From Saccharofermentans sp. (GTDB taxonomy: Bacteria > Bacillota > Clostridia > Saccharofermentanales > Saccharofermentanaceae): 64,000 nt of DNA. Positions within the stretch are counted from its first letter, which is position 1; every line of letters begins with the position of its first letter. The notes beneath the pieces are model-generated. The model was not told where the DNA came from. It was given only the letters and a program-made list of their open reading frames with translations, and made no database searches. Both the position numbers and the translations under genes were made by a program. The stretch is taken from positions 1-64,000 of the forward strand of contig JAILMW010000011.1 in the NCBI GenBank assembly GCA_024692235.1, read 5' to 3'. Positions 32,316-49,278 of this stretch are shown piece by piece.

Positions 32316-32319
32316 GTAC

Positions 32320-32754
32320 TTATTGTACTATAGCGAACTTCAATGTGCACTTAACAGCTGTCTTGCCGTCAACAGTTGCTTCAGCCTCACCTACTCCGAC
32401 GGGACCTCTTACCTGAGTGATCTTTGTCTCAAGTCTTACTGTGTCGCCGGGAAGGATCTGTCTTTTGAACTTACAGTTATCGATACCTGCAAATACTGCG
32501 ATCTTACCCTTGAACTCCTCCTGGGAAAGGATAGCAACGGCACCTGTCTGTGCGAGAGCCTCTACCATGAGAACGCCGGGAGTAATGGGGTAATCAGGGA
32601 AGTGTCCTCTGAAGAAGGACTCATCGTATGTGATGTTCTTATATGCGATGCAGTACTGGCCGGGCTCGTAGTCCTCTACCTTGTCGATAAGAAGGAAAGG
32701 ATGTCTGTGGGGGATGATCTCCATTATGCCCTTAAGGTCAAGTGAATTAGCCAT
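32320..32754 (-). CDS. fabZ: 3-hydroxyacyl-ACP dehydratase FabZ
   Basis: 144 aa; [46 protein letters not shown]. Confidence 0.97.
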
Positions 32755-32773
32755 TAGTTTGTCCTCCTTTGAA

Positions 32774-34009
32774 TTACTCTTCGTACTTCTTGATAAGGAT
32801 AGTAGCGTTATGTCCGCCGAATCCCAAGTTGTTGCTCATTGCGTAAGTGATATCTTTATGCTTGCCCTCGAAGAATGTGTAGTCGAGATCAAGCTCTTCC
32901 TCACTCTCCTTGGAACCTGCAGTAACGTGAACATAGCTGTTCTCGATCGCCTTTACCATAACGATGAACTCGACGCCGCCTGCGCCTCCGAGGAGATGTC
33001 CGATCATGGACTTGGTGGAGTTGATTGCTACGTTCTTAGCCTCGTCACCGAAAGCATACTTGATGGCTCTTGTCTCGAAGAGGTCGTTATGGTGTGTGGA
33101 AGTACCGTGAGCATTGATGTAGTCAACATCCTTAGGCTCGATACCTGCTTCCTGCATGGCGATCTTCATTGCCATACCTGCACCGGAACCGTCCTCTGCA
33201 GGAGATGTGATATGGTAAGCATCGTTAGTAGCACCGTATCCTACAACCTCTGCAAGGATCTTAGCGCCTCTTGCCTTAGCGTGCTCTAATTCCTCGAGAA
33301 CTACGACACCTGAACCTTCACCGATAACAAAACCGTCTCGGTCCTTGTCGAAAGGTCTTGAAGCCGTCTTGGGATCTGTGGAATTGGAAAGAGCAGTAAG
33401 GGAGATAAAGCCCTGTACTCCGAGAGGACATACAGCTGCCTCTGCACCGCCTGCGAGCATTACGTCAGCATCACCCCACTTGATTGCCTTGAAAGCATCA
33501 CCTATGGAGTGAGAACCGGAAGCACAGGCAGTAACGATATCTATGTTCTTACCCTTCATGCCGAACTTGATGGCGATATTAGCGGAAGCCATGTTAGAGA
33601 TCATCATGGGGATATAGAAAGGATTTACCTTCTTGCCTTCCATGAGCTTTGTATGCTCTCTCTCGTTTGCCTGCATGGATCCGATACCGGAGCTTACGAT
33701 AACACCTACACGGAAAGGATCTTCCTTAGTCATATCAAGACCGGACTGTTCTACTGCCTCACAAGCTGCAGCTACTGCATACTGTGAGAAGAGCTCCATC
33801 CTCTTAGCTGTCTTGAAGTCCATGTACTTTGTGGGATCAAAGTCCTTGACCTCACCTGCCATAGTTGCCTTATATCCTGTAGTATCGAACTTAGTGATGG
33901 GGCCGATAGCGACCTTACCTTCTACAAGTCCGTTCCAGAAGCTCTCAACATCGTTACCGAGGGGTGTGATAGCACCCATACCCGTAACTACAACTCTTTT
34001 TGTTTCCAT
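32774..34009 (-). CDS. fabF: Beta-ketoacyl-ACP synthase II
   Basis: 411 aa; [61 protein letters not shown]. Confidence 0.97.
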
Positions 34010-34038
34010 CTTATCTTTTTCCTCGTTCTTATTCTCGA

Positions 34039-34776
34039 TTACATGTGCATTCCGCCGTCTACGGAAAGGACCTGACCTGTGATATAGGAAGCATCATCTG
34101 ATACGAAGAATCCTACTGCATTGGCGATATCCTCTACCTGACCGTATCTCTTCAAGGGGATACCTGCGAGCATCTGCTCCTTGACCTTCTCGGGAAGAAC
34201 GTCAGTCATGGGAGTCTGAACGAATCCGGGAGCGATGGCATTACATGTGATGTTCTTACCTGCATACTCTCTTGCGGCACTCTTAGTGATACCGATAACG
34301 CCTGCCTTAGATGCAGAGTAGTTGACCTGGCATGCATTGCCCTGAAGTCCTACGATAGAAGAGATAGAAACGATGCGGCCGTACTTCTGCTTGCTCATTA
34401 CGGGAACTACTTCACGGAAGAAGTTGTATGTACCCTTGAGGTTAACTGCGATAACGGAATCAAAATCAGCTTCGCTCATCCTTACGAGGAATCCGTCTCT
34501 TGTGATACCTGCGTTGTTAACAAGTGCATCGATGGATCCGAATGTGGAAGCTACGTCTGCTACTGTCTCCTTAACGCTCTCGCTTGAAGATACATCGCAT
34601 CTGTAAGCCTTAGTATCAACGCCGTACTCCTTAGCGATCTCATCAGCTGTCTCCTGGGATCCTTCGATGGGGCATGCGTCTACTACTGCGATGTTATAAC
34701 CCATCTTTGCGAGCTTAACTGCGATAGCCTTACCGATTCCTCTGGCACTTCCTGTTACGATTGCTGTCTTAGCCAT
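34039..34776 (-). CDS. fabG: 3-oxoacyl-ACP reductase
   Basis: 245 aa; TGSARGIGKAIAVKLA, YSASKAGVIGITKSAAREYAGKNITCNAIAPGFVQTPMTD. Confidence 0.95.
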   Translation of the reverse strand: MAKTAIVTGSARGIGKAIAVKLAKMGYNIAVVDACPIEGSQETADEIAKEYGVDTKAYRCDVSSSESVKETVADVASTFGSIDALVNNAGITRDGFLVRMSEADFDSVIAVNLKGTYNFFREVVPVMSKQKYGRIVSISSIVGLQGNACQVNYSASKAGVIGITKSAAREYAGKNITCNAIAPGFVQTPMTDVLPEKVKEQMLAGIPLKRYGQVEDIANAVGFFVSDDASYITGQVLSVDGGMHM

Positions 34777-34794
34777 GTTACTTGTCCTCCGAAT

Positions 34795-35724
34795 TTATTT
34801 TGCAAGTTCTGCGATCGCAGCTGCGGCTGCGTCAATATCTTCTACTGTGGATACGTTGATCACGGGGATCTCGGGTACTGTCTTCTTAACAAATCCCGCG
34901 ATGGTCTTACCGGGACCGATCTCAACAAATACGTCTACGCCCAAGTCCTTCATCTTAAGAAGTGTCTGCTCCCACATAACGGAAGAAGATACCTGTGTCT
35001 GAAGAAGGTCTCTTATATTAGTCGTATCCTCTACTACTTCTGCAGTAGCATTTGCGATATAAGGGATCTTAAGGTCTGAGATCTCCGCCTTATCAAGCTC
35101 AAGTCTTAACTTATCACCTGCGCCCTTGAGCATGGGAGAATGGAAAGGTCCTGATACCTTAAGCTCGATAGCTCTCTTGGCACCCTTCTCGGATAATGCC
35201 TCCATACCCTTACATACTGCTTCCTTCTCGCCTGTGATAACGATCTGGCCGGGGCAATTGTAATTAGCTACTGATGCGCCTTCGATGGGAGCTACCGTCT
35301 CTTCGATAGTCTCCTTGGGAAGGCCTATGATGGCAGCCATCGTTCCCTGACCTGCGGGTACGTAAGAGCTCATGAGATTACCTCTGATCCTTGTAAGTCT
35401 TACAGCCTCATCGAAAGTCATGGCGCCTGCAGTAACAAGTGCGCAGTACTCTCCGAGGGAAAGACCTGCCGTGATGTCGGGATGGATGCCCTTATCTTCA
35501 AGAGCCTTGCTCATGATGGAGCAAGCAGTAACGAGTGCGGGCTGCGTGTACTCAGTTACATGGATATCTTCATTCTCTTCGAAGAGGATGTGCTCCATAT
35601 CAAAGCCTGCTGCGTCTGTTGCTCTCTTTACCATATCCTTGGCATAGTCGAACTTATCGTAGAAGTCCTTTGCCATGCCTACTGCCTGTACTCCCTGACC
35701 GGGATAAACAAATGCGATCTTCAT
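34795..35724 (-). CDS. fabD: Malonyl-CoA:ACP transacylase
   Basis: IAFVYPGQGVQAVGM, AGLSLGEYCAL; start MKIAF at 35724 within ORF 34795..35736. Confidence 0.96.
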   Translation of the reverse strand: MKIAFVYPGQGVQAVGMAKDFYDKFDYAKDMVKRATDAAGFDMEHILFEENEDIHVTEYTQPALVTACSIMSKALEDKGIHPDITAGLSLGEYCALVTAGAMTFDEAVRLTRIRGNLMSSYVPAGQGTMAAIIGLPKETIEETVAPIEGASVANYNCPGQIVITGEKEAVCKGMEALSEKGAKRAIELKVSGPFHSPMLKGAGDKLRLELDKAEISDLKIPYIANATAEVVEDTTNIRDLLQTQVSSSVMWEQTLLKMKDLGVDVFVEIGPGKTIAGFVKKTVPEIPVINVSTVEDIDAAAAAIAELAK

Positions 35725-35729
35725 ACTTC

Positions 35730-36665
35730 TTAACAAATCTCCTTTGCGTTCTTAAGGAGCTTATTTGCCTCCTCGAACATATCGTCGATGATCTTCTGAA
35801 CGGGTCTGATCTCATTGATCATTCCGGAGATCTGACCTGCCATGAACGTACCTGCCTTGGTATCGCCCTCGACAACAGCCTTACGAAGGGAACCTACGCC
35901 CAATGCCTCAAGCTCCTCAAAGCTTGCATGAGCCTCTTCGAGCTCCAAGTACTTAGCAGTAAGCTGATTTCTGATCTGTCTTACGGGAGCACCTGCTGCG
36001 CGGCCCGTAACTCTCGTAGATGTATCCTTGGCCTTGATGATCATCTCTTTGTAGTTCTGGTGGATATTAACTTCCTCGGAAGCGCAGAATACAGTTCCGC
36101 ACTGGACTGCCTCCGCACCGAGCATGAAGGATGCTGCGACACCTCTGCCGTCAGCGATACCGCCTGCTGCAACTACGGGGATATTAACTGCATCTACTAC
36201 CTGGGGAACAAGAGCCATTGTAGTGATCTCACCTACATGTCCGCCGGACTCCGTACCCTCTGCGATAACTGCATCGGCGCCGTCCTTCTCCATCTTCTTT
36301 GCAAGAGCAACGGAAGGAACTACGGGAATAACGATGATGCCTGCTTCCTTCCACATGGGAATGAACTTACCTGCGGAACCTGCACCTGTTGTTACTACCT
36401 TTACCTTCTCCTCTGCAAGTACTTCTGCGATCTGGGGAGCTCTGGGATTCATGAGCATAACATTAACGCCGAAAGGCTTGTCCGTAAGCTCACGGCACTT
36501 GTGGATCTGATCTCTGATCCAGTTCTCGTCTGCGCCGCCGCATCCGATGATTCCGAGTCCGCCTGCATTACTTACTGCAGCGGCGATGTGGTAATCAGCT
36601 ACCCAGGCCATACCGCCCTGGAAGATAGGATACTTAATTCCGATCATGTCTGTGATCTTTGTCAT
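35730..36665 (-). CDS. fabK: Enoyl-ACP reductase II (FMN-dependent, FabK type)
   Basis: 311 aa; KYPIFQGGMAWVADYHIAAAVSNAGGLGIIGCG, PVVAAGGIADGRGVAASFMLGAEAVQCGTVF. Confidence 0.92.
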   Translation of the reverse strand: MTKITDMIGIKYPIFQGGMAWVADYHIAAAVSNAGGLGIIGCGGADENWIRDQIHKCRELTDKPFGVNVMLMNPRAPQIAEVLAEEKVKVVTTGAGSAGKFIPMWKEAGIIVIPVVPSVALAKKMEKDGADAVIAEGTESGGHVGEITTMALVPQVVDAVNIPVVAAGGIADGRGVAASFMLGAEAVQCGTVFCASEEVNIHQNYKEMIIKAKDTSTRVTGRAAGAPVRQIRNQLTAKYLELEEAHASFEELEALGVGSLRKAVVEGDTKAGTFMAGQISGMINEIRPVQKIIDDMFEEANKLLKNAKEIC

Positions 36666-36686
36666 AGTGTTCTTGCTCCTTCCGAA

Positions 36687-37661
36687 TCAATAAACAAAAT
36701 AGTTGGCACCCCATGTAAGACCGCCTCCGAAGGAAGACATAACGATCTTGTCGCCCTTCTTGAGCCTGCCGTCCTTCTTCATCTCCGTTAAGAGGATCGG
36801 AATGGATGCCGATGATGTGTTACCTGTGTTCTGGATATTCATGGGGAACTTCTCGAGAGGTACGTTAAGCTTCTTAGCCGTAGCCTCGATGATCCTCTTA
36901 TTTGCCTGATGGAATACGAAGTGATCTATCTCATCCATCTTAAAGCCGTACTTAGCGGAGAGTTCTTCGATAAGAGCAGGGATCTCCGTTACTACGAATC
37001 TGAATACTTCCCTGCCGTTCATATACATGAATGTCGACTGCAAAAAGCCCTCTTCGTCAACTCTCTTAGGCTGCTTCATGGACTCGCAGTGAAGGCAGCC
37101 GCCTCTCTTCATGGAAGCCTTCATGATGAAGCTGTTCTTCTCGCCTTCCTCTGCACGGAGCACTGCGGCGCCCGCACCGTCACCGAAGAGGATACATGTT
37201 CCTCTGTCGTTCCAGTCTACAAAATTAGAAAGGCACTCGGCTCCGAGTACAAGAACAGTCTTTGCATTGCCTGTCTCGATAAAGCCCTGTGCCGTGTTAT
37301 ATGCCGCGATGAATCCGGGACAAGCCGAATTAACGTCAAAGCAAGCACATCCGTCTGCACCTATAGCACCCTGTACGCAGCAGGCGATACCCGGGAATGC
37401 CAGATCGGGAGTAGTGGAAGCTGCTACGATAAGATCGATCTCGGAAGGATCGATACCCGCATCCTCGATAGCAGCCTTTGCTGCTTTGCAAGCCATAGTG
37501 GAAGCCTTATCCTCCACCGCGTCAGCTATATGACGCTGCTTGATGCCCGTTCTCTCGGTGATCCATTCGTCATTTGTCTCGACCATCTTGGAGAGGTCGT
37601 CATTAGTAAGTATCTTCGGAGGCAGATAAGAGCCAAGTCCGATGATTTTTCCGGTCAACAT
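36687..37661 (-). CDS. fabH: Beta-ketoacyl-ACP synthase III
   Basis: 324 aa; TNDEWITERTGIKQRHIA, ACFDVNSACPGFIAAY, FVFHQANKRIIEA, NTGNTSSASIP. Confidence 0.97.
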   Translation of the reverse strand: MLTGKIIGLGSYLPPKILTNDDLSKMVETNDEWITERTGIKQRHIADAVEDKASTMACKAAKAAIEDAGIDPSEIDLIVAASTTPDLAFPGIACCVQGAIGADGCACFDVNSACPGFIAAYNTAQGFIETGNAKTVLVLGAECLSNFVDWNDRGTCILFGDGAGAAVLRAEEGEKNSFIMKASMKRGGCLHCESMKQPKRVDEEGFLQSTFMYMNGREVFRFVVTEIPALIEELSAKYGFKMDEIDHFVFHQANKRIIEATAKKLNVPLEKFPMNIQNTGNTSSASIPILLTEMKKDGRLKKGDKIVMSSFGGGLTWGANYFVY

Positions 37662-37682
37662 AGAATACCGCCTTTATAAATC

Positions 37683-37697
37683 CTTTGATAATCAAAG
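37683..37697 (-). promoter_or_regulatory. FabT-like operator palindrome upstream of fabH
   Basis: 15-nt palindrome CTTTGATAATCAAAG directly adjoining the predicted -10 of the fabH promoter. Confidence 0.6.
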
Positions 37698-37724
37698 TAT
37701 TACACAACGGTGTTTTGCCGTCAA
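37696..37724 (-). promoter_or_regulatory. Predicted sigma-A-type promoter for the fab cluster
   Basis: Minus strand TTGACG (37724-37719), 16-17 nt spacer, TAATACT. Confidence 0.55.
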
Positions 37725-37773
37725 TAGAAACATTGGGGCAGAAATCGGGTATTGGCCGATATAAAAGCTTATA

Positions 37774-38664
37774 TCAGAACAACTGAAGCTGAGCCCATGC
37801 TCCTTCAAGAGGAACATCCGTCATCTTTATTATCCCGGCCTTTGTAAGTTCGTTCTCGCTCTCATAGGAATTCTTATTCACTTTGGCGGGAGCAAGGTAG
37901 CACCTTACTTTAGCTTCCGTTGCACGACGAACAAAATCGGGCAATGTCTTGCTGTTCTGCGTGCCCGAATGGTATGCCTCGATAAGCACCATATCGTACA
38001 AAGAAGGATCTATCGTCTCGTAGGGGAATCCCGGCACGTTAGGTACCGTAAGTATCTTGGGGATGCTCTCCTTCTCGAGAAATTCCATGACGGACTTACG
38101 ATCAAGGAATACTTCCGTACCCTTCACGGCAAACTTCTTATGGTCTCCGTTATAGTCCGCATCCGTCGCCTGCCATGCGGGAACAAAAGTGGAATCTTCC
38201 ATGAAGGAATCGCAGAAGACGATACCGAAGGTCTTGCGGCCGGCTTCGCTTAGGGCACCTGCCCCCAGGAGTGCCAGTGAGAACTTAATATTCTTGATGG
38301 CATCGGTCTTCTGATCGTCAGGAGGAAGCTTACTTCCCGTTATTACTACCGGTATATCCAGGAAGGACAATACTCGTACGGCCAGCTGCGCAAAGTATGC
38401 GGCAGTATCCGTTCCGTGAAGAATAAGGACTCCGTCGGGACGATCCTTCTCCACTTCAGCAATTATCGCGCGGAATGCCGCCTTGTAGTCAGCAACTGTC
38501 GCATCTTCCGAAGAATATGTAAGAGGACTTATCTTACGAAGGTTAAATCCCGCTCCTGCCTTGTTCCAGAACTTATCGTTCACGGTAGAGCCGAGCTTTA
38601 TATTCTTTCCTTCAATATGTGATCCGATGGTGCCTCCCAAGAGGCATACGAGAATGTTGTTCAT
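37774..38664 (-). CDS. L-asparaginase (type I-like)
   Basis: 296 aa; LLGGTIGSHI, GVLILHGTDTAAYFAQLAVR, PVVITGSKLPPDDQKTDAIKNI. Confidence 0.88.
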   Translation of the reverse strand: MNNILVCLLGGTIGSHIEGKNIKLGSTVNDKFWNKAGAGFNLRKISPLTYSSEDATVADYKAAFRAIIAEVEKDRPDGVLILHGTDTAAYFAQLAVRVLSFLDIPVVITGSKLPPDDQKTDAIKNIKFSLALLGAGALSEAGRKTFGIVFCDSFMEDSTFVPAWQATDADYNGDHKKFAVKGTEVFLDRKSVMEFLEKESIPKILTVPNVPGFPYETIDPSLYDMVLIEAYHSGTQNSKTLPDFVRRATEAKVRCYLAPAKVNKNSYESENELTKAGIIKMTDVPLEGAWAQLQLF

Positions 38665-38987
38665 TGCTTGGTACTCCTGTTGTAGTCATCCCTGGAGGCA
38701 CGCTCGAGATCCGTCCCGGAAAGGTAATCCTTCAGACGCTCCATTATCCGTTCTTCCTCCTCGTCTGCAAAGCCTCTAAACACGACTTCGCTTATATCCG
38801 AATCCTGAAAATACAGATGACGATTTCCTATACCTTCAGGGTACAGTACAGCCGCATAATCGAACATCTTGGGCTTATCCCCCTTCTTCAGTACGACAGA
38901 GATCGCACGTCCGGTTATCATAAAACGCTTATCATTACCTGCTACCTTAACGATCGTACCCAAAGGCTTATAATCTATCATCTGCAT
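38661..38987 (-). CDS. DUF4176-like protein (family linked to T7SS/LXG loci)
   Basis: 108 aa; LGTIVKVAGNDKRFMITGRAISV...MFDYAAVLYPEGIGNRHLYFQDSDISEVVFRGFADEEEERIMERL resembles the DUF4176 pattern; 4-nt overlap with asparaginase. Confidence 0.7.
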   Translation of the reverse strand: MQMIDYKPLGTIVKVAGNDKRFMITGRAISVVLKKGDKPKMFDYAAVLYPEGIGNRHLYFQDSDISEVVFRGFADEEEERIMERLKDYLSGTDLERASRDDYNRSTKQ

Positions 38988-39002
38988 CTTAGCTCTCCTT
39001 AG

Positions 39003-40850
39003 TTATGCCGGTTCACCGACGATTCCCAAGTCGTTCAAACGCTCTTCGTCGTATCCGTCTGTATCCATGGAGGACTGCTCATATGAACTTGACTCAATAT
39101 CCTGATCCAACATATCAGCTACCGTGCCGGCAGTACTAACAGAAGTTAACGACTGAACGGTATCAGCTTGAACAATTGTTAAAAAACTAATTGCGGTCTC
39201 ATCCGATATGGCTGCTGAATATCCTCTGTCACAAAGACCCATTGCTCTGGATACAAGAGCACTTGCAGAAGCACTTGTCATCCCTAAATTTACAAGGACA
39301 TTAACCACTCCATCTTGACTCATCTTCCTCAACAGCAACAAGAGCAGGTATTCTAACTCATTCATTGTAGCGGTAGGAGTGAATCTTGCAGCGTTCGCGA
39401 TAATGGAACCATAAGATGCAAGGCTTCTTGCCGTGCTATATGCATCCTCATCACCGTGATAATAATATTGCAACAATGGATTAAAGCCGCTCGCTTCAGG
39501 ATCGCCCCAATTAAGGTTGTAAAACTCAGTGGCCTCTTCAATAGTATCTGAAATTTGGAAAGCTATAGGAAAACTCTGACCGGTGATGAACACACCTTCA
39601 GCAACACCGGATAATAACGCTGCACCTTCCCAGATACCGTATACTCCACATACAACAGCGAACACACCAACGATCAGATCAACCTGATTGTTTGAGTTAC
39701 GAATATCTCTGGCAACCTCAGTATTAACCTCTCCAGCGTGAGTTGCAGCGAGGCACATATCGCCCATATATTCTTCCTCATTGATCTCTCTAACCTCTTC
39801 AAACGTCTCCTGGTAACCGTCTATACCGATCACATCTGTTGTGGGAGGATATATGTAATCGTATCTTCCCTGAACATTAGCAATAACGGAATTAATAAAA
39901 TCGACAAGTTCAAAAATCGGACGTTCTGTCTCACTCTGATCCGCAATCAATGTATCTTCAATCTCGTCAACCTTGTCGATCATACTCTGGGTAGTTTCAA
40001 CCAGAGCATTATACTTATCTGACAGTTCTCTGATACCCGGAATAGTATCATTGAAGTCGTACTCATAAGCGGAATCAATATATAAGTTCATTGTACTAGA
40101 GACGATATATGTGTGCTTTCTGCGCATATAGTCGCCTTTAGCATCCAAGGCCTGTATAAACTCTTCCATCTTTGCCTTATAGAAAACATAATAATCCCCG
40201 TTGTACGTCAACAACGAACTGTTGGAATAGCTATTCCAATAGTGGGATATATGCGCAAAGAACGTCTGCGCAACGGTTCTTATTCCCTGGCAAACATTCG
40301 TATGAATTTCATAAAAATACCCTAAAGTAGCTTCAGATGCTTCACCACTGAAATTAGGTGTGGATCGAAAAGATGTTATCATACCAATAAGCGTATTTGT
40401 GTGATCTATCAATTCAAAGAGATTCTCAATAATATTGGCTGCCATCATATCAAGATCATGAATTCCAAATGACCAATCCGGATACATATGAGCGGCTGTA
40501 CCGACTGTATATTCAACCGTTTGGGGATCGACCAGACAATCCAACAAGATAGACCACCTGGTTTCAGTTGAATGAATATCATCAAAAGCTAATACATTTC
40601 CGCAAGCACTATCAAAAAAGTAAAATGCACACGCCGTATCTGCTATATATCCCAGATCCCTCTTGAACAGCAAAATGTATTTGGAAATGATATCTCTGAA
40701 ATTATTATATGCATCAGGCAGATACTGTAAGCCCGCTGCAGTGTGTCCTGTCGTAGTTCTTAATATCGGGAGTGCCAATTCCTCTGCAGCTTCCCTCAAC
40801 CCGGTCATTTCTTCCAATAATTCATCTTCATTAACAACAATATTCGACAT
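39003..40850 (-). CDS. Predicted LXG-like T7SS substrate with unassigned C-terminus
   Basis: 615 aa without Sec signal; ASEATLGYFYEIHTNVCQGIRTVAQTFFAHISHYWNSY aligns by eye with the 713-aa protein; central hydrophobic LIVGVFAVVCGVYGIWEGAALLSGVAEGVFI; FNPLLQYYYHGDEDAYSTARSLASYGSII resembles LXG pre-toxin regions. Confidence 0.6.
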   Translation of the reverse strand: MSNIVVNEDELLEEMTGLREAAEELALPILRTTTGHTAAGLQYLPDAYNNFRDIISKYILLFKRDLGYIADTACAFYFFDSACGNVLAFDDIHSTETRWSILLDCLVDPQTVEYTVGTAAHMYPDWSFGIHDLDMMAANIIENLFELIDHTNTLIGMITSFRSTPNFSGEASEATLGYFYEIHTNVCQGIRTVAQTFFAHISHYWNSYSNSSLLTYNGDYYVFYKAKMEEFIQALDAKGDYMRRKHTYIVSSTMNLYIDSAYEYDFNDTIPGIRELSDKYNALVETTQSMIDKVDEIEDTLIADQSETERPIFELVDFINSVIANVQGRYDYIYPPTTDVIGIDGYQETFEEVREINEEEYMGDMCLAATHAGEVNTEVARDIRNSNNQVDLIVGVFAVVCGVYGIWEGAALLSGVAEGVFITGQSFPIAFQISDTIEEATEFYNLNWGDPEASGFNPLLQYYYHGDEDAYSTARSLASYGSIIANAARFTPTATMNELEYLLLLLLRKMSQDGVVNVLVNLGMTSASASALVSRAMGLCDRGYSAAISDETAISFLTIVQADTVQSLTSVSTAGTVADMLDQDIESSSYEQSSMDTDGYDEERLNDLGIVGEPA

Positions 40851-40866
40851 ATTCCCCTACCTCCAT

Positions 40867-41415
40867 TTATCTAATTAAATTCAAAATATTTGAAGAAATG
40901 TCGCTCATTGTATCCGAAATAGTAGATCTCAACGACTCAAGATCTGAAGCAAGTCTGCTAACCTCTGCTGAGACTTCATCTCGATAACCGGCAAATAAAT
41001 AGATATTCTCATTGATATCATCACGACACGCAATCGCCTGAGCTTTGGTATTTTCAACTTCATCCTCATATGCGATTGTCATGGATTTCAAAAGCGTAGG
41101 AGAATCATCACAATAACAATTACTGAATAGATTTTCAATGAACAGGCCTTGACATGTGTGTTCTACTTCAGCATTCATACAATTGGGTAAATACTCTAAT
41201 TCATCATATACGTTAGAATGTATCTCGTTCTTATACTCTTCAAGAAATTCAATATATGCATCAAGCAGATCTTTCTTTGCAGTTAACTCTTCTATGCGAG
41301 TGCACCACTCATTGTACGCATTGACTGCTGAATTATACGCATCTTGCGCTTGTGATAATAAACTATTATTCCCAGAATTTCCCGGGTGTGGCATATTAAT
41401 TCCCTCACAATTCAA
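40867..41415 (-). CDS. Helical small protein upstream of LXG-like gene (Lap-like role proposed)
   Basis: 182 aa, predicted coiled coil (EWCTRIEELTAKKDLLDAYIEFLEEYKNEI), no signal peptide, 16 nt upstream of the LXG-like gene. Confidence 0.5.
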   Translation of the reverse strand: MNCEGINMPHPGNSGNNSLLSQAQDAYNSAVNAYNEWCTRIEELTAKKDLLDAYIEFLEEYKNEIHSNVYDELEYLPNCMNAEVEHTCQGLFIENLFSNCYCDDSPTLLKSMTIAYEDEVENTKAQAIACRDDINENIYLFAGYRDEVSAEVSRLASDLESLRSTISDTMSDISSNILNLIR

Positions 41416-41471
41416 ATAATTTGCTATATTAATTTAGTGTATAATATAACAAAAACCGTTTACGAGGCTAT

Positions 41472-42257
41472 ATGAAAAAAGAAACAAAATCTTTTGTGAT
41501 AATTTCCTTATCTTTGCTAATTTCTTTTATAAGCACAGGATGCATACCACATCCTAGACCTACACAAACACAATATGACCCCACCGAATATAGTTCGGTC
41601 GCTAGCGAGATCCTGGATTCGATGCAAAACGGTGCACACGGTCTGGACTCCGATCTTCCCTGGTATACAGATATTTGCGGCTATGTGAATGATGGCGTCT
41701 ATTGTAACGAGAATCTCATGTTCTCGATCGAGATCCCTGAAGATTGGCATGTTTATTCCTTGGAAGAAATGGGAGAATACGGAGTCCCGTCATCCACTGC
41801 TCGATTGGTTTTCGACGCCGAAGCAGACCACAGGATCGACCCGGGCGATGAGGTCTACGATCTTATGTGCGATGACTCTGAAGGCCATCGCATCAGCGTA
41901 TTATTAAATTTTTGGGGTTATAATCCTCCATACGATGTCCTAACAAGGACACATCTCAACAACATCATGCGCGACAGCAGGACCGAATTGGAAGCGGATT
42001 CTACAGTCTCAAGAGTAACTAGAGATGACCCGACTCTTGTCGAAGTCAACGGACAACTTGTATATACGATCAATTGGACTATTCACCATGAGGATGGTTC
42101 CGAGACATATCGAACTGAGATAATCGACTTTTACCAATCGTCTACAAGAGTTGTAGCCATTGAATATAATTCTCCGGAAGAGCTGGAAGAGTATATGTCC
42201 CTTATCACGTATCAGGCTGATAACACATTCCCTTCTACTGAAGAGACTTCCTCATAA
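41472..42257 (+). CDS. Lipoprotein of unknown function, divergent from the LXG-like locus
   Basis: MKKETKSFVIISLSLLISFISTGCIP lipobox; FSIEIPEDWHVYS segment seen in PsbP/DUF1795-type domains. Confidence 0.6.
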   Translation: MKKETKSFVIISLSLLISFISTGCIPHPRPTQTQYDPTEYSSVASEILDSMQNGAHGLDSDLPWYTDICGYVNDGVYCNENLMFSIEIPEDWHVYSLEEMGEYGVPSSTARLVFDAEADHRIDPGDEVYDLMCDDSEGHRISVLLNFWGYNPPYDVLTRTHLNNIMRDSRTELEADSTVSRVTRDDPTLVEVNGQLVYTINWTIHHEDGSETYRTEIIDFYQSSTRVVAIEYNSPEELEEYMSLITYQADNTFPSTEETSS

Positions 42258-42990
42258 GATCGCGCAGCTCATCTTCATCGTAGCTTCCGCACATGATATC
42301 TATATGCATGGGGACAAGATCCTTGAACTTCAGATATGCATGATCTTCCATGAGGTCCGAATAGAACTTCTCTCTGTCTCCGTCACACATGATGCTGCTG
42401 GCGGTCTCCGTAGTGAATATGGACTTTCTGAACAGCAGGTTCATGTTGAGAGTGAAGCCTTCGGAATATAGGATTATATGAAGGACATAGTATGTCTTAA
42501 GGTCTGAATAGCGAGTTCCTTCTAATGAATCGTATTCGATATTTTCGCCTTCCTTGATGTGTGCGTCGGTTATCTCCTTGAATATCCTTACGGCTTCCTT
42601 AACCGTAACATCCTCAGGGCGTGCCTCCTTAAGCTCTCCCGCAAGAGGAAGATATCTGTTGCCGGGTCTGTCGTAAGGCCACTCGGGAATACCTGTAAGC
42701 GATTCAACCAGCTTAGCGATATCTTCGTAAGGAGTATTGCTCCTTAATCCGGAGTATAAGAGCTTGGAGCATTCGTCGTCTCCGTCCTTGACGGCTGACA
42801 GACACTTGACGGTCTCCATGACGGATACGATAAGATCGAATGCCAGAAATGCTACACCTACCGCAAGATATGCAGTGTTTATCCTGCTAAGGATAAGTCC
42901 GAGCAGAAAGATCACAAGACAAAATCCCAGCCTGAAGAAGAATGTGCTGATAAAAAGACCGAATACGACCTTGAGATAGAACTTGTTCAC
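42235..42990 (-). CDS. Membrane protein of unknown function
   Basis: 251 aa, two N-terminal TMs then a soluble domain; 3' end overlaps the convergent lipoprotein by 23 nt. Confidence 0.6.
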   Translation of the reverse strand: MNKFYLKVVFGLFISTFFFRLGFCLVIFLLGLILSRINTAYLAVGVAFLAFDLIVSVMETVKCLSAVKDGDDECSKLLYSGLRSNTPYEDIAKLVESLTGIPEWPYDRPGNRYLPLAGELKEARPEDVTVKEAVRIFKEITDAHIKEGENIEYDSLEGTRYSDLKTYYVLHIILYSEGFTLNMNLLFRKSIFTTETASSIMCDGDREKFYSDLMEDHAYLKFKDLVPMHIDIMCGSYDEDELRDLMRKSLQ

Positions 42991-43043
42991 CTAAATACTC
43001 CTGCGGTTAGTTGATGCAGGAGCATTATATCACAGGGAGAGCG

Positions 43044-46000
43044 TTACCATTTCCACTCTTCGAAGAATCTCTTCACGCCTGCTCCTCCGCCTTCGGCCTG
43101 CTCACCCTGAAGCTCTGCCTTGCGCTTGCCGTACTCGTTGATGGCAGCCATAGAGATAAGGATCACTCCTACTACCAGGAGGTATACGAGCCATGCCTTG
43201 CTTGCCCAGAATGTGGCGGATAAGTATATGGCGATGGCGATTATCGCGATGACCGAGAGTAAGAACCAGGACTTGTCCTTGGCGATAAAGGCGTAGATGA
43301 AGATAGCGACCGATACGATACCGGTGATAAGAAGATCTGATATCTCTCCTGTAGCAGCGGCACTTATTCCTTCTATCGCAAGACAGAATGAGACCGTTAC
43401 GATCCAGATGACTCTCATGGTGGATTCCTTACCGGGCTTTATGACGTTCCTTATTATGAATACGTCAAGAAGGATAAGGAGCATTACGACTTCACCGCTT
43501 ATTACATCCGGAAGATCTTTTACTAACGGAAGGCTTAAGATCGCCAGGCACATAAAAGACGTGGAAATGGAAAGAAGTATCGCCTTGGCCTTGGGGAATC
43601 TTATCGCATGATTAATAAGGATAAGAGCGATCGTAAAAAGTATCGCGAACAGCGCTATGTCAGAGTTGCTGTTGTTGCTTGCCGCATTAAGCGGGAACAA
43701 TATGGATACATACGTCAGGTAATCAAGATATAAGGGCTTGGTATATACCTTCTTATGAAGGAGAAGTCCGAGGCCTATAAGAAGTACGCCGATCACGCAA
43801 GCGAATATGTAATAACCGCCGACAGAAGATAGTGCATCCATTATATAGAACGAACCTATAAGGATAGGTACGATCGCTACTACAGTATTCTTCTTGAGGT
43901 ACATAAGTACGACAAACAAAGAAGCTACGGCTACACCGATCCACGGGCTGACCTCCATAGTCTCATTCCATATGCAGTACAGGGAGCCTATAAGGCAGGA
44001 AGTAATATCGGCAACAGCTATATACTTGCCGATGACTTCGTGAGATCTGATCTGAGGGATAAGACCTGCTGCTATGACTACACTGTAGAAGATGATGCCG
44101 GGGAAGTGTTCAGGTCCGATGAATACGGCACTTATAAGCATAGATACCGAGCAAAGCGCGAATACTACTGCAGCACAGGAACGTATGTCGGGATGCTTGC
44201 CGGGACGTGCTATGTATCTTGAGATCAGTGCAGCAAGAGCAGCAATGATCAGAAGCGAAGATACAACGATCCTTACAGGGCGCGTAGAAGTAGCAGCATC
44301 TATAAGCATACAGACTGAACATGCATAGTAAGCATAAGAAGCCCAGGCTGCCATGGTCTTGCCCTTTATCTTGGGGATAACTACCGCGCATGCGATATAG
44401 CAGATAAGTGCGATCGCGCCTCCGAATACCATGGGAAGATCGGTATTGCCGCGATAGAAGATAACTGTTCCGACTGAATAGAATAACGTCGAAGAGAATA
44501 TTCCGCCGGCAATAAGAGATGCGATCTTAACCTCCTTGCGGTTATCTTTCCTGAAGGCACATACTGCCATAAGAAGTACCGATGCCGCGATAAGCACGAT
44601 GCTGACAACATAACGAGCTGCTAACTGATCGTCGAAGACCAGCTTTCCCATAAGAGCTGCTACAAAGAATACGGCGGGATAAGCAAGGTCGGTGACTGCA
44701 TTTCGAAGTTTGGAAAACTCGGTGAAGATATAGAAGACAAGAAGACATATACCGAATACCGCCATCTCGGTTTCTACTCCGGACGAGGAAGGGATATCAG
44801 CGAATGTAGTTGCATACAAAGATATGAAGGCGGCGATCGCGGGTGTTATATAGCGCTGCCACTTGGAGCCTCCGAAGACGACTCTTATATAAAGGCTTGC
44901 AAATACCATAAGAAGGCAGAGCATGTATATGACGGATCTCGGATCTCCGAATGCGGCTGCCATAAAGGCCATGGCAGTGTAGTGGCTGATGGCAGAAAGA
45001 ACGCGTGATACCTTAGTTGCTGTCTCCTTCTCCGTTATTGACATACGGACGGAGCGAACGATGGCGGAAGTACAGATCGCCAAATACATCAAGTGACCCG
45101 AGAGCGTAGGGAAAGCGCTGACGAATGTCGCGAACATGAATGCATAGGAACAGATCCTTAAGGAGGGATGCTTCTGTCGCTTGTAGTTGCAAAGGATATA
45201 AAGGGCCAGCGCAGATGTATATGCCATCGCCGAAGCCGAATAGAGAACACCCGTATTGATGTGATCCGGAAGCTTAGTTCCGAGCATGGAGGCAATGTTC
45301 TGCAAAGCCTTGCCCAGGGTGTTGTCGTAGAAGATGCCGGTGCCTGCGCAGTACACGAGAGCAATACTTGTAAGAGAGGCTACAGCCGAGAGTATATAGC
45401 TTACGATCCTGTTCTGCCCCTTGGAGAAAGCCGAATACCCTGCCACAAGCGCAGTTACGAAGATAACTGAGAGCGTCACATAGTAGAAACTTGTAAATTC
45501 GGGTCTGTATTCTATCCATCCTGCGAAGATGCCTCCGACAAGAGAGAAAGTAAGGATAAGATCTGATGCTATGGAATTCCTCTTTATAACCTTAAGGAGC
45601 ACGAAGAATGCAGTGATAAGAAGAGCATATACCATAAGAGGATATGTCCTGTCGTTGTACTCGTACTTTGTAAAGGATGTGGCATAAAGCGAGAATATAA
45701 GCATCGCCACGGGTGCAGCATATCCCATCCACTTCTTCTTGCCGATAAGAAGAGTCGCGATAACAAGGCCCAGGCCGATTATTACGGGGATATTTTCGAA
45801 GTTCCATAAAACAAGGAATATCGCGCCCAGGGATACATATGTGATAACTTCGGAATAAAGCTTAAAGAACTTGATCTCTTCGCTCTTCTTACTGTGCGAG
45901 AATAACGTTGCTGCCAAAGATGCCGCGGACAGTGCCGAGAAACAGCATCCGACCCTGTCGTAGAACCCGGATGCGAACTGAGCCGCTACGAACAGAAGCG

Positions 46001-46781
46001 TCCAGGTAAATCCGAGATACATTATGCCGTAGTATGCACCTGACTTATAGATCTTAACTCCCACATAACCTGCAAGTCCGAACAGGAGCGCCGCACATGC
46101 AGCTACTATGGCACCTCCGTTCCCTGCGAAAGAGAACCACTCGCCGATAAGCTTCATGGCACCGATGCCGCAAGTGACTACAGGAAGCAAGAGCGATCCT
46201 AATGTATAGAAAGCAAAGCCGGTCTGCTTAAGCTTAAGGACCTTACCTGATAAGTACGATAGGAAGAATACCAGAGCTACTACTCCGATAAGCACTCCCG
46301 CTCTTACACCGTCGTTCATGAATCCCCAGGATGAGGATATAAATACCGCACCCACTATGGTGATAAGAAGTACGCCGACGGCAAAAGATATATTGATACT
46401 GCTGAACTTGACTTTTTCTTTGGGCTTCGAAGAAGGCTTGGGCAAAGGCGCAGGTGCACTTACGGGAGCAGGTCTTTGAACTGTTGCCTGATCCTTTATG
46501 GCAGCTGCAGGCTGAACCTGAGTCTTTACTTCCGGCTTTTGAACCGGAACTTGTACCTTGGGAGATTGAACATTATTCTGAGAAGAAGCAGAAGGCTTAG
46601 CCTGAGAAGATTTATTCATCTCGCCTATCTGCCGCCTTAAGGCATCTACCGTATTCTGATAATGACGAAGCCTCTTGGTCTTAGAGTTGTTATTAACAAG
46701 CAGGACTACTATGGCTATGGTTGCTCCCAAGCCATACATGAACTGAAGTATTATAAACAAGATATAACCCAGATCGTCCAT
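43044..46781 (-). CDS. Very large polytopic membrane protein (SCO7613/DUF2157-like)
   Basis: 1245 aa; N-terminal TM, Pro/Lys/Gln-rich linker, then a long series of hydrophobic segments. Confidence 0.7.
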   Translation of the reverse strand: MDDLGYILFIILQFMYGLGATIAIVVLLVNNNSKTKRLRHYQNTVDALRRQIGEMNKSSQAKPSASSQNNVQSPKVQVPVQKPEVKTQVQPAAAIKDQATVQRPAPVSAPAPLPKPSSKPKEKVKFSSINISFAVGVLLITIVGAVFISSSWGFMNDGVRAGVLIGVVALVFFLSYLSGKVLKLKQTGFAFYTLGSLLLPVVTCGIGAMKLIGEWFSFAGNGGAIVAACAALLFGLAGYVGVKIYKSGAYYGIMYLGFTWTLLFVAAQFASGFYDRVGCCFSALSAASLAATLFSHSKKSEEIKFFKLYSEVITYVSLGAIFLVLWNFENIPVIIGLGLVIATLLIGKKKWMGYAAPVAMLIFSLYATSFTKYEYNDRTYPLMVYALLITAFFVLLKVIKRNSIASDLILTFSLVGGIFAGWIEYRPEFTSFYYVTLSVIFVTALVAGYSAFSKGQNRIVSYILSAVASLTSIALVYCAGTGIFYDNTLGKALQNIASMLGTKLPDHINTGVLYSASAMAYTSALALYILCNYKRQKHPSLRICSYAFMFATFVSAFPTLSGHLMYLAICTSAIVRSVRMSITEKETATKVSRVLSAISHYTAMAFMAAAFGDPRSVIYMLCLLMVFASLYIRVVFGGSKWQRYITPAIAAFISLYATTFADIPSSSGVETEMAVFGICLLVFYIFTEFSKLRNAVTDLAYPAVFFVAALMGKLVFDDQLAARYVVSIVLIAASVLLMAVCAFRKDNRKEVKIASLIAGGIFSSTLFYSVGTVIFYRGNTDLPMVFGGAIALICYIACAVVIPKIKGKTMAAWASYAYYACSVCMLIDAATSTRPVRIVVSSLLIIAALAALISRYIARPGKHPDIRSCAAVVFALCSVSMLISAVFIGPEHFPGIIFYSVVIAAGLIPQIRSHEVIGKYIAVADITSCLIGSLYCIWNETMEVSPWIGVAVASLFVVLMYLKKNTVVAIVPILIGSFYIMDALSSVGGYYIFACVIGVLLIGLGLLLHKKVYTKPLYLDYLTYVSILFPLNAASNNSNSDIALFAILFTIALILINHAIRFPKAKAILLSISTSFMCLAILSLPLVKDLPDVISGEVVMLLILLDVFIIRNVIKPGKESTMRVIWIVTVSFCLAIEGISAAATGEISDLLITGIVSVAIFIYAFIAKDKSWFLLSVIAIIAIAIYLSATFWASKAWLVYLLVVGVILISMAAINEYGKRKAELQGEQAEGGGAGVKRFFEEWKW

Positions 46782-46869
46782 GAATCAATCGTAACACACG
46801 TGTTTAGAAAGTGCAAATTTACACTTTTACGATATGATTACAACTTTTTCACGGACGATCCGCGGAGCT

Positions 46870-48489
46870 TTATCTCTCTGATGTCCTGTATTCGTTAAGG
46901 ACTATAACAGTACTTATCTGATCTTCTTCACGAGATTCTCTGATAGTATAGCTGTTGCACATATAATCACTGTTATCCTGATCGTAGAATCTGAACTCCA
47001 GCTCGGAATCCTTTAATGTGCTTCCGTCGGGAAGATCGTTAGCATTAACAGTAAACTCTTGTGTACTTCCGCTTGAGATAACGGGAGATCCGTCGGCATT
47101 ACACATACCGCTTACCATCTCTCCGTCTGCGTATAACTCCACATAGCCGATATCTCTGCTGCTCTGATTCTCTGCATATACGGTGAATGACCCTCTCTGC
47201 GTAAGTCCTGCTTCACCGTGATATCCGACGACCGTAAAGACGCCGGAGATGATGCTCATAAGGACATAAGATGCGGCCGTAAATATTATCCATGCTCTTA
47301 CATGGTTCTTACCCTTGATAACAGATATGATCACGGTTACAGCAGCCGCCGCAAGGATCACCGTTCCCCACATGGCAAGCATCCTCTTAGGCGTATAGCC
47401 GAAGGTATTAAAGTACATAAGAAGCTTACTTAAGGATACGACGGCAAAGAGGATGCTCTCTGTCATAAGAAGAGCCATAAGTCCCTTAGAGACTTTCCCC
47501 TTACCTTCAGCTCTTCTCTCGAATATATTAACTACGACATATACGAGCATATTGATAGCCATTATGCCTACAAGTTCAAAGAAGCCTCTTCTTGCATAGT
47601 CTACGACATTAAAGCCATCGGGGATCATTCCCATAAGACCTCCGAATATATATCTGAACTCTACGACGAAGAACAGAATATACATAGCGGCAAAAAGACC
47701 TGTTATAAAGCTCATGGCAAGTGAAGATACATTTCTTCTCCTGGAAAGAGCCTCTTGGCACTTCTTCCCCGCTTCGCGCTCCTTATCTCCATTGCTCTTG
47801 GAAGATCCGGAGACAAGTCCGTAGAGGAAGAGGCAGACAGGGCATGCGAACAAGAGTCTTAATATACATCTTGCAACGACATCAGCCCTCAGATACTTAA
47901 AGATATCAAGTGTTGTGAGGATCTTCTCGATGATCTTTTCAAAGTCGCTGTTTATCTTGGATAAAAGGACCATGGCAACTATGAAGAACGGGAGAAGTAT
48001 CAATACCGGGATGATCCAGGAGAAAGATACTTTCTTCTTCTCCTGTCCCTCTTCCTTATTACGAAGATCCTTGGATTCGATTATATATTCGCCCATATTC
48101 GCGAACGACCCGACAAAAGCACCTCTTGCAAGGTCGAGCCATATATAAGATCCGGTCTTCTTATCTACAAGGATATCGTTAGATATAAGGACGGAATATA
48201 TCGCACACAGATGTATACCCAGCATAGAGAGATCGAAGGAAGGAGCGATCCCCGAAGTAAGAGATGTAAGTACCATTACCGCGTACCAGAAGAAAGATCT
48301 CCTGTCAGTCTTCTCTCTTCTTCCGTGAAGTACGATCTCGTTCCAGGCGATAAAGAGAATGCTGAAGATCGTGGGGAAGATCCATATATGTTCAGGCTGC
48401 TTCCAGGGCCATATCAGAAGTAAATAAAGGTATGCAAGAGGATAGGCGAGCATGAGGCCCGCCCTCCTTAATGTTATCTTGTTGTCCAT
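46870..48489 (-). CDS. Polytopic membrane protein, DUF4173/DUF4153-like
   Basis: Multi-TM; GFNVVDYARRGFFELVGIMAINMLVY. Start MDNKITLRR at 48489 within ORF 46870..48534. Confidence 0.65.
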   Translation of the reverse strand: MDNKITLRRAGLMLAYPLAYLYLLLIWPWKQPEHIWIFPTIFSILFIAWNEIVLHGRREKTDRRSFFWYAVMVLTSLTSGIAPSFDLSMLGIHLCAIYSVLISNDILVDKKTGSYIWLDLARGAFVGSFANMGEYIIESKDLRNKEEGQEKKKVSFSWIIPVLILLPFFIVAMVLLSKINSDFEKIIEKILTTLDIFKYLRADVVARCILRLLFACPVCLFLYGLVSGSSKSNGDKEREAGKKCQEALSRRRNVSSLAMSFITGLFAAMYILFFVVEFRYIFGGLMGMIPDGFNVVDYARRGFFELVGIMAINMLVYVVVNIFERRAEGKGKVSKGLMALLMTESILFAVVSLSKLLMYFNTFGYTPKRMLAMWGTVILAAAAVTVIISVIKGKNHVRAWIIFTAASYVLMSIISGVFTVVGYHGEAGLTQRGSFTVYAENQSSRDIGYVELYADGEMVSGMCNADGSPVISSGSTQEFTVNANDLPDGSTLKDSELEFRFYDQDNSDYMCNSYTIRESREEDQISTVIVLNEYRTSER

Positions 48490-48494
48490 GTGAA

Positions 48495-48701
48495 TTAATC
48501 CTCTTGGTATTCCAGGATATCTCCGGGCTGACAATCCAGCGCCTTACAGATATCGTTCAATGTGGAGAACCTGACTGCCTTAGCTTTCTGGTTCTTGAGT
48601 ATAGAGAGATTGGCGGGTGTGATGCCGACCTTCTCTGCGAGGTCTCCGGAGGAGATCTTACGCTTTGCCATCATGACATCGAGATTAACTATAATAGCCA
48701 T
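48495..48701 (-). CDS. XRE-family HTH regulator (YozG-like)
   Basis: 68 aa; MAIIVNLDVMMAKRKISSGDLAEKVGITPANLSILKNQKAKAVRFSTLNDICKALDCQPGDILEYQED. Confidence 0.93.
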   Translation of the reverse strand: MAIIVNLDVMMAKRKISSGDLAEKVGITPANLSILKNQKAKAVRFSTLNDICKALDCQPGDILEYQED

Positions 48702-48716
48702 ATCATTCTCCTCCTT

Positions 48717-49175
48717 TCAGATAGTAAGATCAAGATCGTTCTTCATGACGATAGCCTTGTCGAAGACGACCTTTACCGATAATACGATAAGTGCCATGAA
48801 CCATGCCACAAGTGCCAGGAATGCTGATTCGCCCCATACGAGTCCCAATACTGCAAATGCAACGCCTGCGCCGATAAGGGAGAATACGATGTAGGACATG
48901 AGCTTCGTGTTCTTGGTATCGAAGACGACATCCTTGCTCATATTGGCCAGGAGCTTATAGACACTTATAAGGACTACATAAGCCAGTACGGTTACGGCGT
49001 AATAGACGATGGTAAATATCGTATATGCCAGCTGGTCGTCTCTTCTTGCCCATACATTGCAGATGTACCTGGCTGAAGTCCAGCCTACCGCATCTGCGAA
49101 CACTACCAAAAGAATGAAGAAGATCGTGGCGACTTTGGACCACTTGATGATCTTGTTGTTATATTTGCTTTCCAT
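48717..49175 (-). CDS. DUF2975-like membrane protein
   Basis: 4-TM protein directly upstream of the small XRE regulator, a common pairing; start MESKYNN at 49175. Confidence 0.75.
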   Translation of the reverse strand: MESKYNNKIIKWSKVATIFFILLVVFADAVGWTSARYICNVWARRDDQLAYTIFTIVYYAVTVLAYVVLISVYKLLANMSKDVVFDTKNTKLMSYIVFSLIGAGVAFAVLGLVWGESAFLALVAWFMALIVLSVKVVFDKAIVMKNDLDLTI

Positions 49176-49278
49176 ATCAAAAACCTCCTGCATAGAGTAA
49201 TAAGCATGCTCTTATAGCATCATAATACTCTTCGTTTTATCGAAATGCAAGAGGTTTTTATTGTTTTTCGATATATTT

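What the first reader, a model, noticed from the sequence alone, without database searches (positions are those of the whole stretch)
37774..41415. Second orphan LXG-like locus with a DUF4176-like protein
182-aa helical protein, 615-aa LXG-like protein with a central hydrophobic segment and pre-toxin-like FNPLLQYYYHGDEDAY, then a DUF4176-like protein. DUF4176 is a family I associate with T7SSb/LXG loci. Two LXG-like loci about 12 kb apart, with no EssC/EsaA/EssB/YukD-type genes between them, indicate dispersed effector islands.
Basis: partly seen in the sequence, partly recalled or inferred. Interest (0 to 1): 0.75.

Follow-up and report, generated by a model that had tools for sequence, protein, structure and literature searches.

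The report
Mobile LXG toxin module, fused targeting domain
A rumen-type gut bacterium carries an inserted gene set for a probable secreted antibacterial (LXG) toxin with its chaperone; it is a known kind of system, but in this genus the toxin's targeting helper seems to be built into the toxin protein, and the secretion machine that seemed missing probably just fell into gaps of the genome assembly.

Summary
Window 38661-41394 (minus strand) encodes a 175-aa helical protein (ATG 41394, not the 182-aa TTG frame), a 615-aa LXG-like protein and a true DUF4176 protein (72.7 bits, cut-off 25). Alone, the 615-aa protein misses Pfam's LXG cut-off (18.9 vs 26.5); as a family, residues ~130-340 are LXG (profile-profile E 5e-18; solved LXG structure 8gmh, E 1e-4). 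The asparaginase-like gene at 37774 is core flank: relative KHP2 has a 48-bp empty site where the window carries ~4.4 kb (38665-43045). So this is an inserted effector module, one of at least four dispersed LXG loci.

"Orphan" is not established. EssC, EssB and EsaA are absent from the assembly, but it is a fragmented, MEGAHIT-like MAG that breaks exactly where KHP2 carries its complete T7SSb operon.

The unusual part: these LXG proteins carry a ~110-aa N-terminal domain before LXG that resembles WXG100/Lap1 proteins (Prob 71%, 0 of 400 shuffles), and each has one small partner gene, whereas canonical LXG loci examined have two. I read this as a targeting factor fused to its toxin: a genus-restricted variant, unproven structurally.

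The parts
38665..43045 (.). Inserted module (about 4.38 kb) between the asparaginase-like gene and the 1245-aa membrane-protein gene; absent in KHP2 (48 bp between the same two genes), replaced by other genes in G017
   Evidence: window 30500-38664 and 43046-50000 match G001:C7:88474-96625 and 81469-88423, adjacent in G001; G017 has 1251-aa + 226-aa genes there; GC 0.42 against 0.46-0.49 in flanks
40867..41394 (-).
   Evidence: ORF; Shine-Dalgarno before ATG 41394; 21-22% identity to the gene in the same position beside DUF4176/LXG in G001 (135 aa) and G017 (139 aa); no significant profile match to the Lap2 set
39003..40850 (-). 615-aa LXG-family effector protein
   Evidence: Pfam LXG 18.9 bits (below cut-off); 22.8% to KHP2 592-aa LXG beside T7SSb (E 4e-16); family profile hits solved LXG 8gmh_B
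40521..40850 (-). N-terminal extension, residues 1-110: WXG100/Lap1-like predicted helical hairpin, FYFFD at residues 76-80
   Evidence: hhalign to WXG100 set Prob 71%, E 3.7e-5, 95 columns, 0 of 400 shuffles reach it; predicted helices 8-33, 39-62, 67-87 at low confidence; D/E conserved at the aligned position in 12 of 12 members
39831..40463 (-). LXG domain proper, residues ~130-340
   Evidence: hhalign of residues 120-340 of the family to canonical LXG N-termini Prob 99%, E 5e-18; 8gmh_B aligns to profile 133-296
39426..39686 (-). Glycine-rich hydrophobic segment plus pre-toxin-like motif (residues 389-475)
   Evidence: 35% identity over 83 aa with a 456-aa LXG protein (LXG 52.2 bits) of Lachnospiraceae AC2029; a related FN...G...Y motif in LXG proteins L103, L104, L107
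39006..39425 (-). C-terminal 140 residues, putative toxin tip; no recognised domain
   Evidence: no Pfam or NCBIfam match
38661..38987 (-). DUF4176 (Ltc-type LXG toxin chaperone); stop overlaps the asparaginase start codon (ATGA)
   Evidence: PF13780 72.7 bits; solved DUF4176 9dcs_A E 2e-16; overlap
41472..42257 (+). 261-aa lipoprotein (signal peptide ending FISTGC), divergent; possible immunity or accessory gene inside the insert
   Evidence: a C-terminal fragment (44% over 45 aa) lies on small contig C23 beside homologues of the genes following EssC in KHP2
42235..42990 (-). 251-aa membrane protein with hydrophobic segments at residues 16-64, inside the insert; candidate immunity gene (inference)
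   Evidence: no family match over cut-off
24999..27424 (-). Second module: 713-aa extension-LXG-CHAP protein with 88-aa partner
   Evidence: absent in KHP2 and G017

Best explanation
The locus is a horizontally variable type VIIb secretion (T7SSb) effector module. The 615-aa protein is an LXG-family polymorphic effector; the DUF4176 protein is its cytoplasmic Ltc-type chaperone; the 175-aa helical protein is its separate Lap-type partner. The first ~110 residues of the effector form a WXG100/Lap1-like domain that takes the place of the second targeting protein normally made from its own gene. Expected path: DUF4176 holds the effector's flexible middle in the cytoplasm; the fused domain and the 175-aa partner bundle with the LXG shaft; the bundle is recognised by EssC and exported; the glycine-rich hydrophobic segment and C-terminal tip act on a neighbouring cell, perhaps on its membrane. 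Shown here by computation: gene content, LXG and DUF4176 homology, insertion, co-occurrence with EssC in relatives, statistical resemblance of the extension to WXG100 proteins. Inferred: secretion, chaperone role, replacement of a Lap by the fusion, toxicity and target. The machinery is probably present in the organism but lost from this assembly.
For: DUF4176 72.7 bits, solved DUF4176 9dcs E 2e-16. LXG: family profile vs canonical LXG E 5e-18, vs solved LXG 8gmh E 9.8e-5. In KHP2 the same trio (DUF4176, helical 135 aa, LXG 592 aa) lies directly upstream of WXG100-EsaA-YukD-EssB-EssC; in G017 a DUF4176-helical-helical-LXG-like-nuclease set adjoins EssC. LXG (PF04740, E<=1e-3) occurs in 4 genomes of the relatives set; the three other than this genome all have full EssC, against 7 of 98 overall (hypergeometric p about 2e-4, my arithmetic). 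Insertion/empty site. Orthologous LXG genes elsewhere in this genome are intact with dN/dS 0.15, 0.16 and 0.43 against KHP2. Extension resembles WXG100. Literature: DUF4176/Ltc chaperones bind LXG toxins (PMC13355648; PMC11322744); Lap pairs needed for export (PMC9600955).
Against: The 615-aa protein by itself is below Pfam's LXG cut-off. No EssC, EssB, EsaA or WXG100 over cut-off in the held assembly, although the models for EssB and EssC detect KHP2's strongly. No recognisable toxin domain and no proven immunity gene. Structure predictions were too poor to test the fold (pLDDT 31.6 and 51.5; Foldseek nothing). The extension matches no Pfam or PDB family credibly by sequence. The 175-aa protein has no significant profile match to Lap2 proteins.
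Confidence: 0.72

Rival explanations
1. True orphan: this lineage has lost (or never had) T7SSb machinery and keeps LXG modules as relics, as cargo exported some other way, or for the immunity genes only.
For: No EssC, EssB or EsaA in an assembly rated 99.5% complete. On C23 the gene preceding the 97%-identical post-EssC genes is a 221-aa membrane protein, not EssC, so the island differs from KHP2's.
Against: Contig C28 stops ~440 bp past the point where KHP2's T7SSb island begins and the right flank resumes on 2.3-kb contig C11 and on C19. 141-bp contig-end overlaps fit a MEGAHIT metagenome assembly, in which variable islands are often lost. LXG genes are intact and constrained. All other sampled LXG-bearing relatives have EssC.
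Confidence: 0.15
2. The N-terminal extension is a lineage-specific elaboration of the LXG shaft that does not replace a Lap protein; the second partner is encoded elsewhere or not needed.
For: No credible sequence match of the extension to Pfam or PDB; direct profile match to the Lap1 set is weak (Prob 11%, E 0.003); the FxxxD motif is strict in only 3 of 12 members.
Against: Full-length collinear match to WXG100 proteins (Prob 71%; 0 of 400 shuffles), of similar strength to the Lap1-WXG100 match in the same test (Prob 85%). All 12 extension-LXG genes have one small partner gene; all 7 above-cut-off canonical LXG genes examined, plus the LXG-like nuclease of G017, have two. The two groups are also phylogenetically separate, so this contrast is not fully independent evidence.
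Confidence: 0.35
3. The 615-aa protein is a secreted structural or accessory LXG protein without a toxin domain.
For: Only 140 residues follow the pre-toxin motif and no toxin family matches; KHP2's 592-aa homologue likewise has no recognised C-terminal domain and sits beside the core operon.
Against: Paralogues carry PG-hydrolase domains (CHAP, NlpC/P60), and a comparable locus in G017 carries a nuclease; the hydrophobic segment resembles the organisation of membrane-active LXG toxins; the insert contains a lipoprotein and a membrane protein that could be immunity.
Confidence: 0.3

Closest known systems
T7SSb LXG toxin modules of Streptococcus intermedius (TelA/B with Lap3/Lap4 and DUF4176; TelC/D with Lap1/Lap2)
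   Same: Small helical partner(s), LXG protein and DUF4176 in one operon; LXG domain homologous to a solved LXG domain (8gmh)
   Different: Only one small partner gene; an extra ~110-aa WXG100-like domain precedes LXG; the gene set is an insert with no essC in the held assembly
S. aureus TspA with lapT1-lapT2-DUF4176 (SACOL2601-2603)
   Same: LXG effector with a DUF4176 partner, encoded away from the ess locus
   Different: Two separate Lap proteins in S. aureus; no N-terminal extension described
Listeria monocytogenes dispersed LXG hotspots (reviewed in PMC10765036)
   Same: LXG genes at several chromosomal sites away from the T7SSb locus, variable between strains
   Different: Distant lineage (Bacilli) and different neighbouring genes
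KHP2 (Ruminococcaceae bacterium) T7SSb operon with DUF4176-135 aa-592 aa LXG
   Same: Same trio, same extension-LXG architecture, same genus
   Different: Directly upstream of esxA-esaA-yukD-essB-essC instead of an isolated insert; gene order differs

Membership tests
LXG effector family (PF04740) | LXG-type helical domain homologous to PF04740 / solved LXG domains | tested here: met
   Single sequence only 18.9 bits, below the 26.5 cut-off; the family of 11 matches canonical LXG at E 5e-18 and solved 8gmh_B at E 9.8e-5
LXG effector family (PF04740) | LXG domain at the extreme N-terminus (usual, not strictly defining) | tested here: not met
   Domain starts at residue ~130 in the 615-aa protein and at ~138-145 in most relatives, against 5-26 in canonical ones
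LXG effector family (PF04740) | Pair of cognate WXG100-like partner genes next to the LXG gene (usual, not strictly defining) | tested here: not met
   One partner gene in 12 of 12 extension-LXG genes; two in 7 of 7 canonical ones examined
LXG effector family (PF04740) | Export by T7SSb (EssC-dependent) | not testable with these tools
   Needs an essC mutant secretome
T7SSb-bearing organism | EssC, EssB, EsaA, YukD in the genome | tested here: inconclusive
   Absent from the assembly, but the assembly breaks at the syntenic T7SSb site of KHP2
DUF4176 / Ltc chaperone | PF13780 domain over cut-off | tested here: met
   72.7 bits against 25; 9dcs_A E 2e-16
DUF4176 / Ltc chaperone | Binds and stabilises the cognate LXG toxin | not testable with these tools
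   Known for other members (PMC13355648, PMC11322744)
WXG100 superfamily / Lap1 (for residues 1-110) | Two-helix hairpin of ~100 residues | tested here: inconclusive
   Profile match to WXG100 Prob 71%, 0 of 400 shuffles; helices predicted, but pLDDT only 51.5
WXG100 superfamily / Lap1 (for residues 1-110) | YxxxD/E or FxxxD export motif near the end of helix 2 | tested here: inconclusive
   D/E conserved 12 of 12 at the aligned place; F at -4 in only 3 of 12, including FYFFD 76-80 here

The most novel reading that the evidence does not exclude
In this rumen genus the T7SSb targeting factor has been permanently fused to its toxin: a WXG100/Lap1-like domain precedes LXG in a whole family of effectors (at least 12 genes in three species), so each toxin carries half of its own export signal and needs only one separate partner. 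This would be a natural covalent version of the Lap-LXG pre-secretion complex.
Probability: 0.5. Interest if true: 0.55.

Novelty: new variant of a known kind. Interest (0 to 1): 0.42.

Why it matters
How T7SSb recognises LXG toxins is an open question; a review notes speculation that all LXG proteins may need a pair of WXG100-like partners (PMC10765036). A natural fusion would show which partner sits where in the complex and give a single-chain construct for structural work. The locus also shows rumen Clostridia carrying exchangeable toxin modules with clean empty sites, including one locus where a relative keeps only the putative immunity lipoproteins. It is also a caution that 'orphan' secretion effectors in MAGs may reflect assembly gaps.

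Tried and rejected
Window asparaginase as part of the module: rejected by synteny. The C37 FtsK-like 473-aa protein and the 983-aa C35 protein as EssC: rejected, since they match only single ATPase stretches. AlphaFold of the full 615-aa protein with three sequences: useless (pLDDT 31.6). AlphaFold of residues 1-114: pLDDT 51.5, and Foldseek to PDB gave nothing below E 2. Lap1-specific match of the extension: weak; column shuffles of the Lap1 set gave a few absurd scores (~132) that I treat as a numerical artefact, so I rely on the WXG100 comparison, which had no such outliers. The match of the extension to a designed TIM barrel is four copies of one weak repeat and was rejected. HlyE, FapA and W_rich_C Pfam hits are below cut-off and treated as spurious. 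A 609-aa protein in L102 with one small neighbour was left out of the canonical set because it has no LXG match.
Full report
WHAT IS THERE. On the minus strand the window encodes a small helical protein, a 615-aa protein and a DUF4176 protein in one tight block. The small protein most likely starts at the ATG at 41394 behind GAGGGA, giving 175 aa rather than 182. The 615-aa protein has one hydrophobic, glycine-rich segment (389-410) and FNPLLQYYYHGDEDAY at 456. DUF4176 is unequivocal: 72.7 bits against a cut-off of 25, and solved DUF4176 structure 9dcs matches at 2e-16. The DUF4176 stop codon overlaps the start of a 296-aa asparaginase-N-domain gene.

IS IT LXG. The 615-aa protein alone scores 18.9 bits, below Pfam's LXG cut-off of 26.5. 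It is related to a 592-aa protein of KHP2 (E 4e-16) and to above-cut-off LXG proteins of G017. With 11 family members, residues 120-340 align to the N-termini of canonical LXG proteins at Prob 99%, E 5e-18, and the family profile finds the solved LXG domain 8gmh_B at E 9.8e-5 over profile positions 133-296. LXG homology is therefore established, at a shifted position. Residues 396-475 match (35%) a 456-aa LXG protein of Lachnospiraceae AC2029, and the FN...Y motif recurs in LXG proteins with other C-termini, so 'pre-toxin-like' is reasonable. The last 140 residues match nothing.

THE LOCUS IS AN INSERTION. Window 30500-38664 and 43046-50000 are adjacent in G001, which is Ruminococcaceae bacterium KHP2 (contig FWXP01000003 is G001:C8 by length and content). 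Only 48 bp separate the 1245-aa gene's stop from the asparaginase start there. G017, of the same genus, has a 1251-aa and a 226-aa gene at the spot instead. The insert, 38665-43045, thus contains DUF4176, the LXG gene, the helical gene, a lipoprotein and a membrane protein, with GC 0.42 against 0.46-0.49 in the flanks. The asparaginase is core. The second window locus behaves alike: KHP2 lacks the 713-aa LXG-CHAP gene and its 88-aa partner but keeps the two paralogous lipoproteins (77%), and G017 is empty. Two further loci, C10 (719 and 687 aa, NlpC/P60-like C-termini) and C28 (748 aa), have KHP2 orthologues with dN/dS 0.16, 0.43 and 0.15. Dispersed LXG loci are already known in Listeria and S. 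aureus (PMC10765036).

IS IT ORPHAN. No EssC, EssB or EsaA is found in the assembly, while the EssC and EssB models detect KHP2's at 1411 and 273 bits. However, contig C28 is collinear with KHP2 up to the start of its T7SSb island and ends ~440 bp later; the right flank resumes at base 1 of the 2.3-kb contig C11 and continues on C19; homologues of the genes after EssC lie, 97% identical, on the 3-kb contig C23. Contig ends share exact 141-bp overlaps, as MEGAHIT leaves with k=141 (my knowledge), so this looks like a MAG. LXG (E<=1e-3) occurs in 4 genomes of the relatives set, and the other three all carry EssC. I conclude that the absence is more likely technical than biological, with loss not excluded.

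THE UNUSUAL PART. In canonical loci (L102-L108; seven proteins over the LXG cut-off) the LXG domain starts at residue 5-26 and two small helical genes accompany it, as Lap pairs do; the LXG-like nuclease gene of G017 also has two. In this genus, 12 LXG genes, including the 615-aa one, have about 110-145 residues before LXG and one small helical gene each. A profile of the extension aligns full length with WXG100 proteins (Prob 71%, E 3.7e-5, 95 columns; 0 of 400 shuffles), about as Lap1 proteins do (Prob 85%), but only weakly with Lap1 itself and not with Lap2. A D/E is conserved 12 of 12 where WXG100 and Lap1 proteins carry the end of the export motif; here it reads FYFFD (76-80), against F77/D81 in LapD1 (PMC9600955), though F is present in only 3 of 12. 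Among 392 genomes of the class, full-length matches occur only in the genus. I propose a fused targeting factor. It is not proven: predicted structures were too poor. The literature searches found no description of such a fusion, within an open-access library only.

MECHANISM. DUF4176 (Ltc) chaperones bind a disordered stretch of LXG toxins and stay in the cytoplasm (PMC13355648); a DUF4176 protein forms part of the TspA complex (PMC11322744). By analogy the 615-aa protein is held by DUF4176, bundled through its own N-terminal domain and the 175-aa partner, and exported by EssC. Membrane action of the C-terminal half is a guess from its glycine-rich hydrophobic segment, as in TelE (PMC10434224). 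The 251-aa membrane protein or the 261-aa lipoprotein may be immunity.

VERDICT. A member of a known effector class by homology, with a genus-restricted architectural variant that deserves a structural test.

Noticed in passing
22789-27424: LXG713-CHAP module with two paralogous lipoproteins (49% identical): full in this genome, lipoproteins only (77%) in KHP2, nothing in G017. Looks like a peptidoglycan-hydrolase toxin with lipoprotein immunity genes and orphan immunity in a relative.
   Followed up: partly
G000:C10:107171-112018 (L034): Two tandem extension-LXG genes (719 and 687 aa) with NlpC/P60-like C-termini, each with a small helical partner; G017 has two different LXG genes at the same site.
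   Followed up: partly
L030:6618-9702 (G017): Beside EssC: DUF4176, two small helical genes, and a 547-aa protein with a colicin DNase/tRNase-like C-terminus followed by a DUF4272 protein, a possible immunity family.
   Followed up: no
L046 (G000:C23, 2989 bp): Genes following EssC in KHP2 are 97% identical here while the surrounding genome is about 90%; one contig end carries part of a lipoprotein like the one at window 41472-42257. Suggests exchange of T7SSb-island genes between strains.
   Followed up: partly
L128:9996-14448 (G017:C5): The insertion site of the window module is occupied in G017 by a 1251-aa apparently secreted protein and a 226-aa protein: a variable hotspot between the asparaginase-like and 1245-aa membrane protein genes.
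   Followed up: no
G043, G032, G048, G052: Genus members with EssC matches over the family cut-off but no Pfam-detectable LXG protein; their effectors may be too divergent for the model.
   Followed up: no
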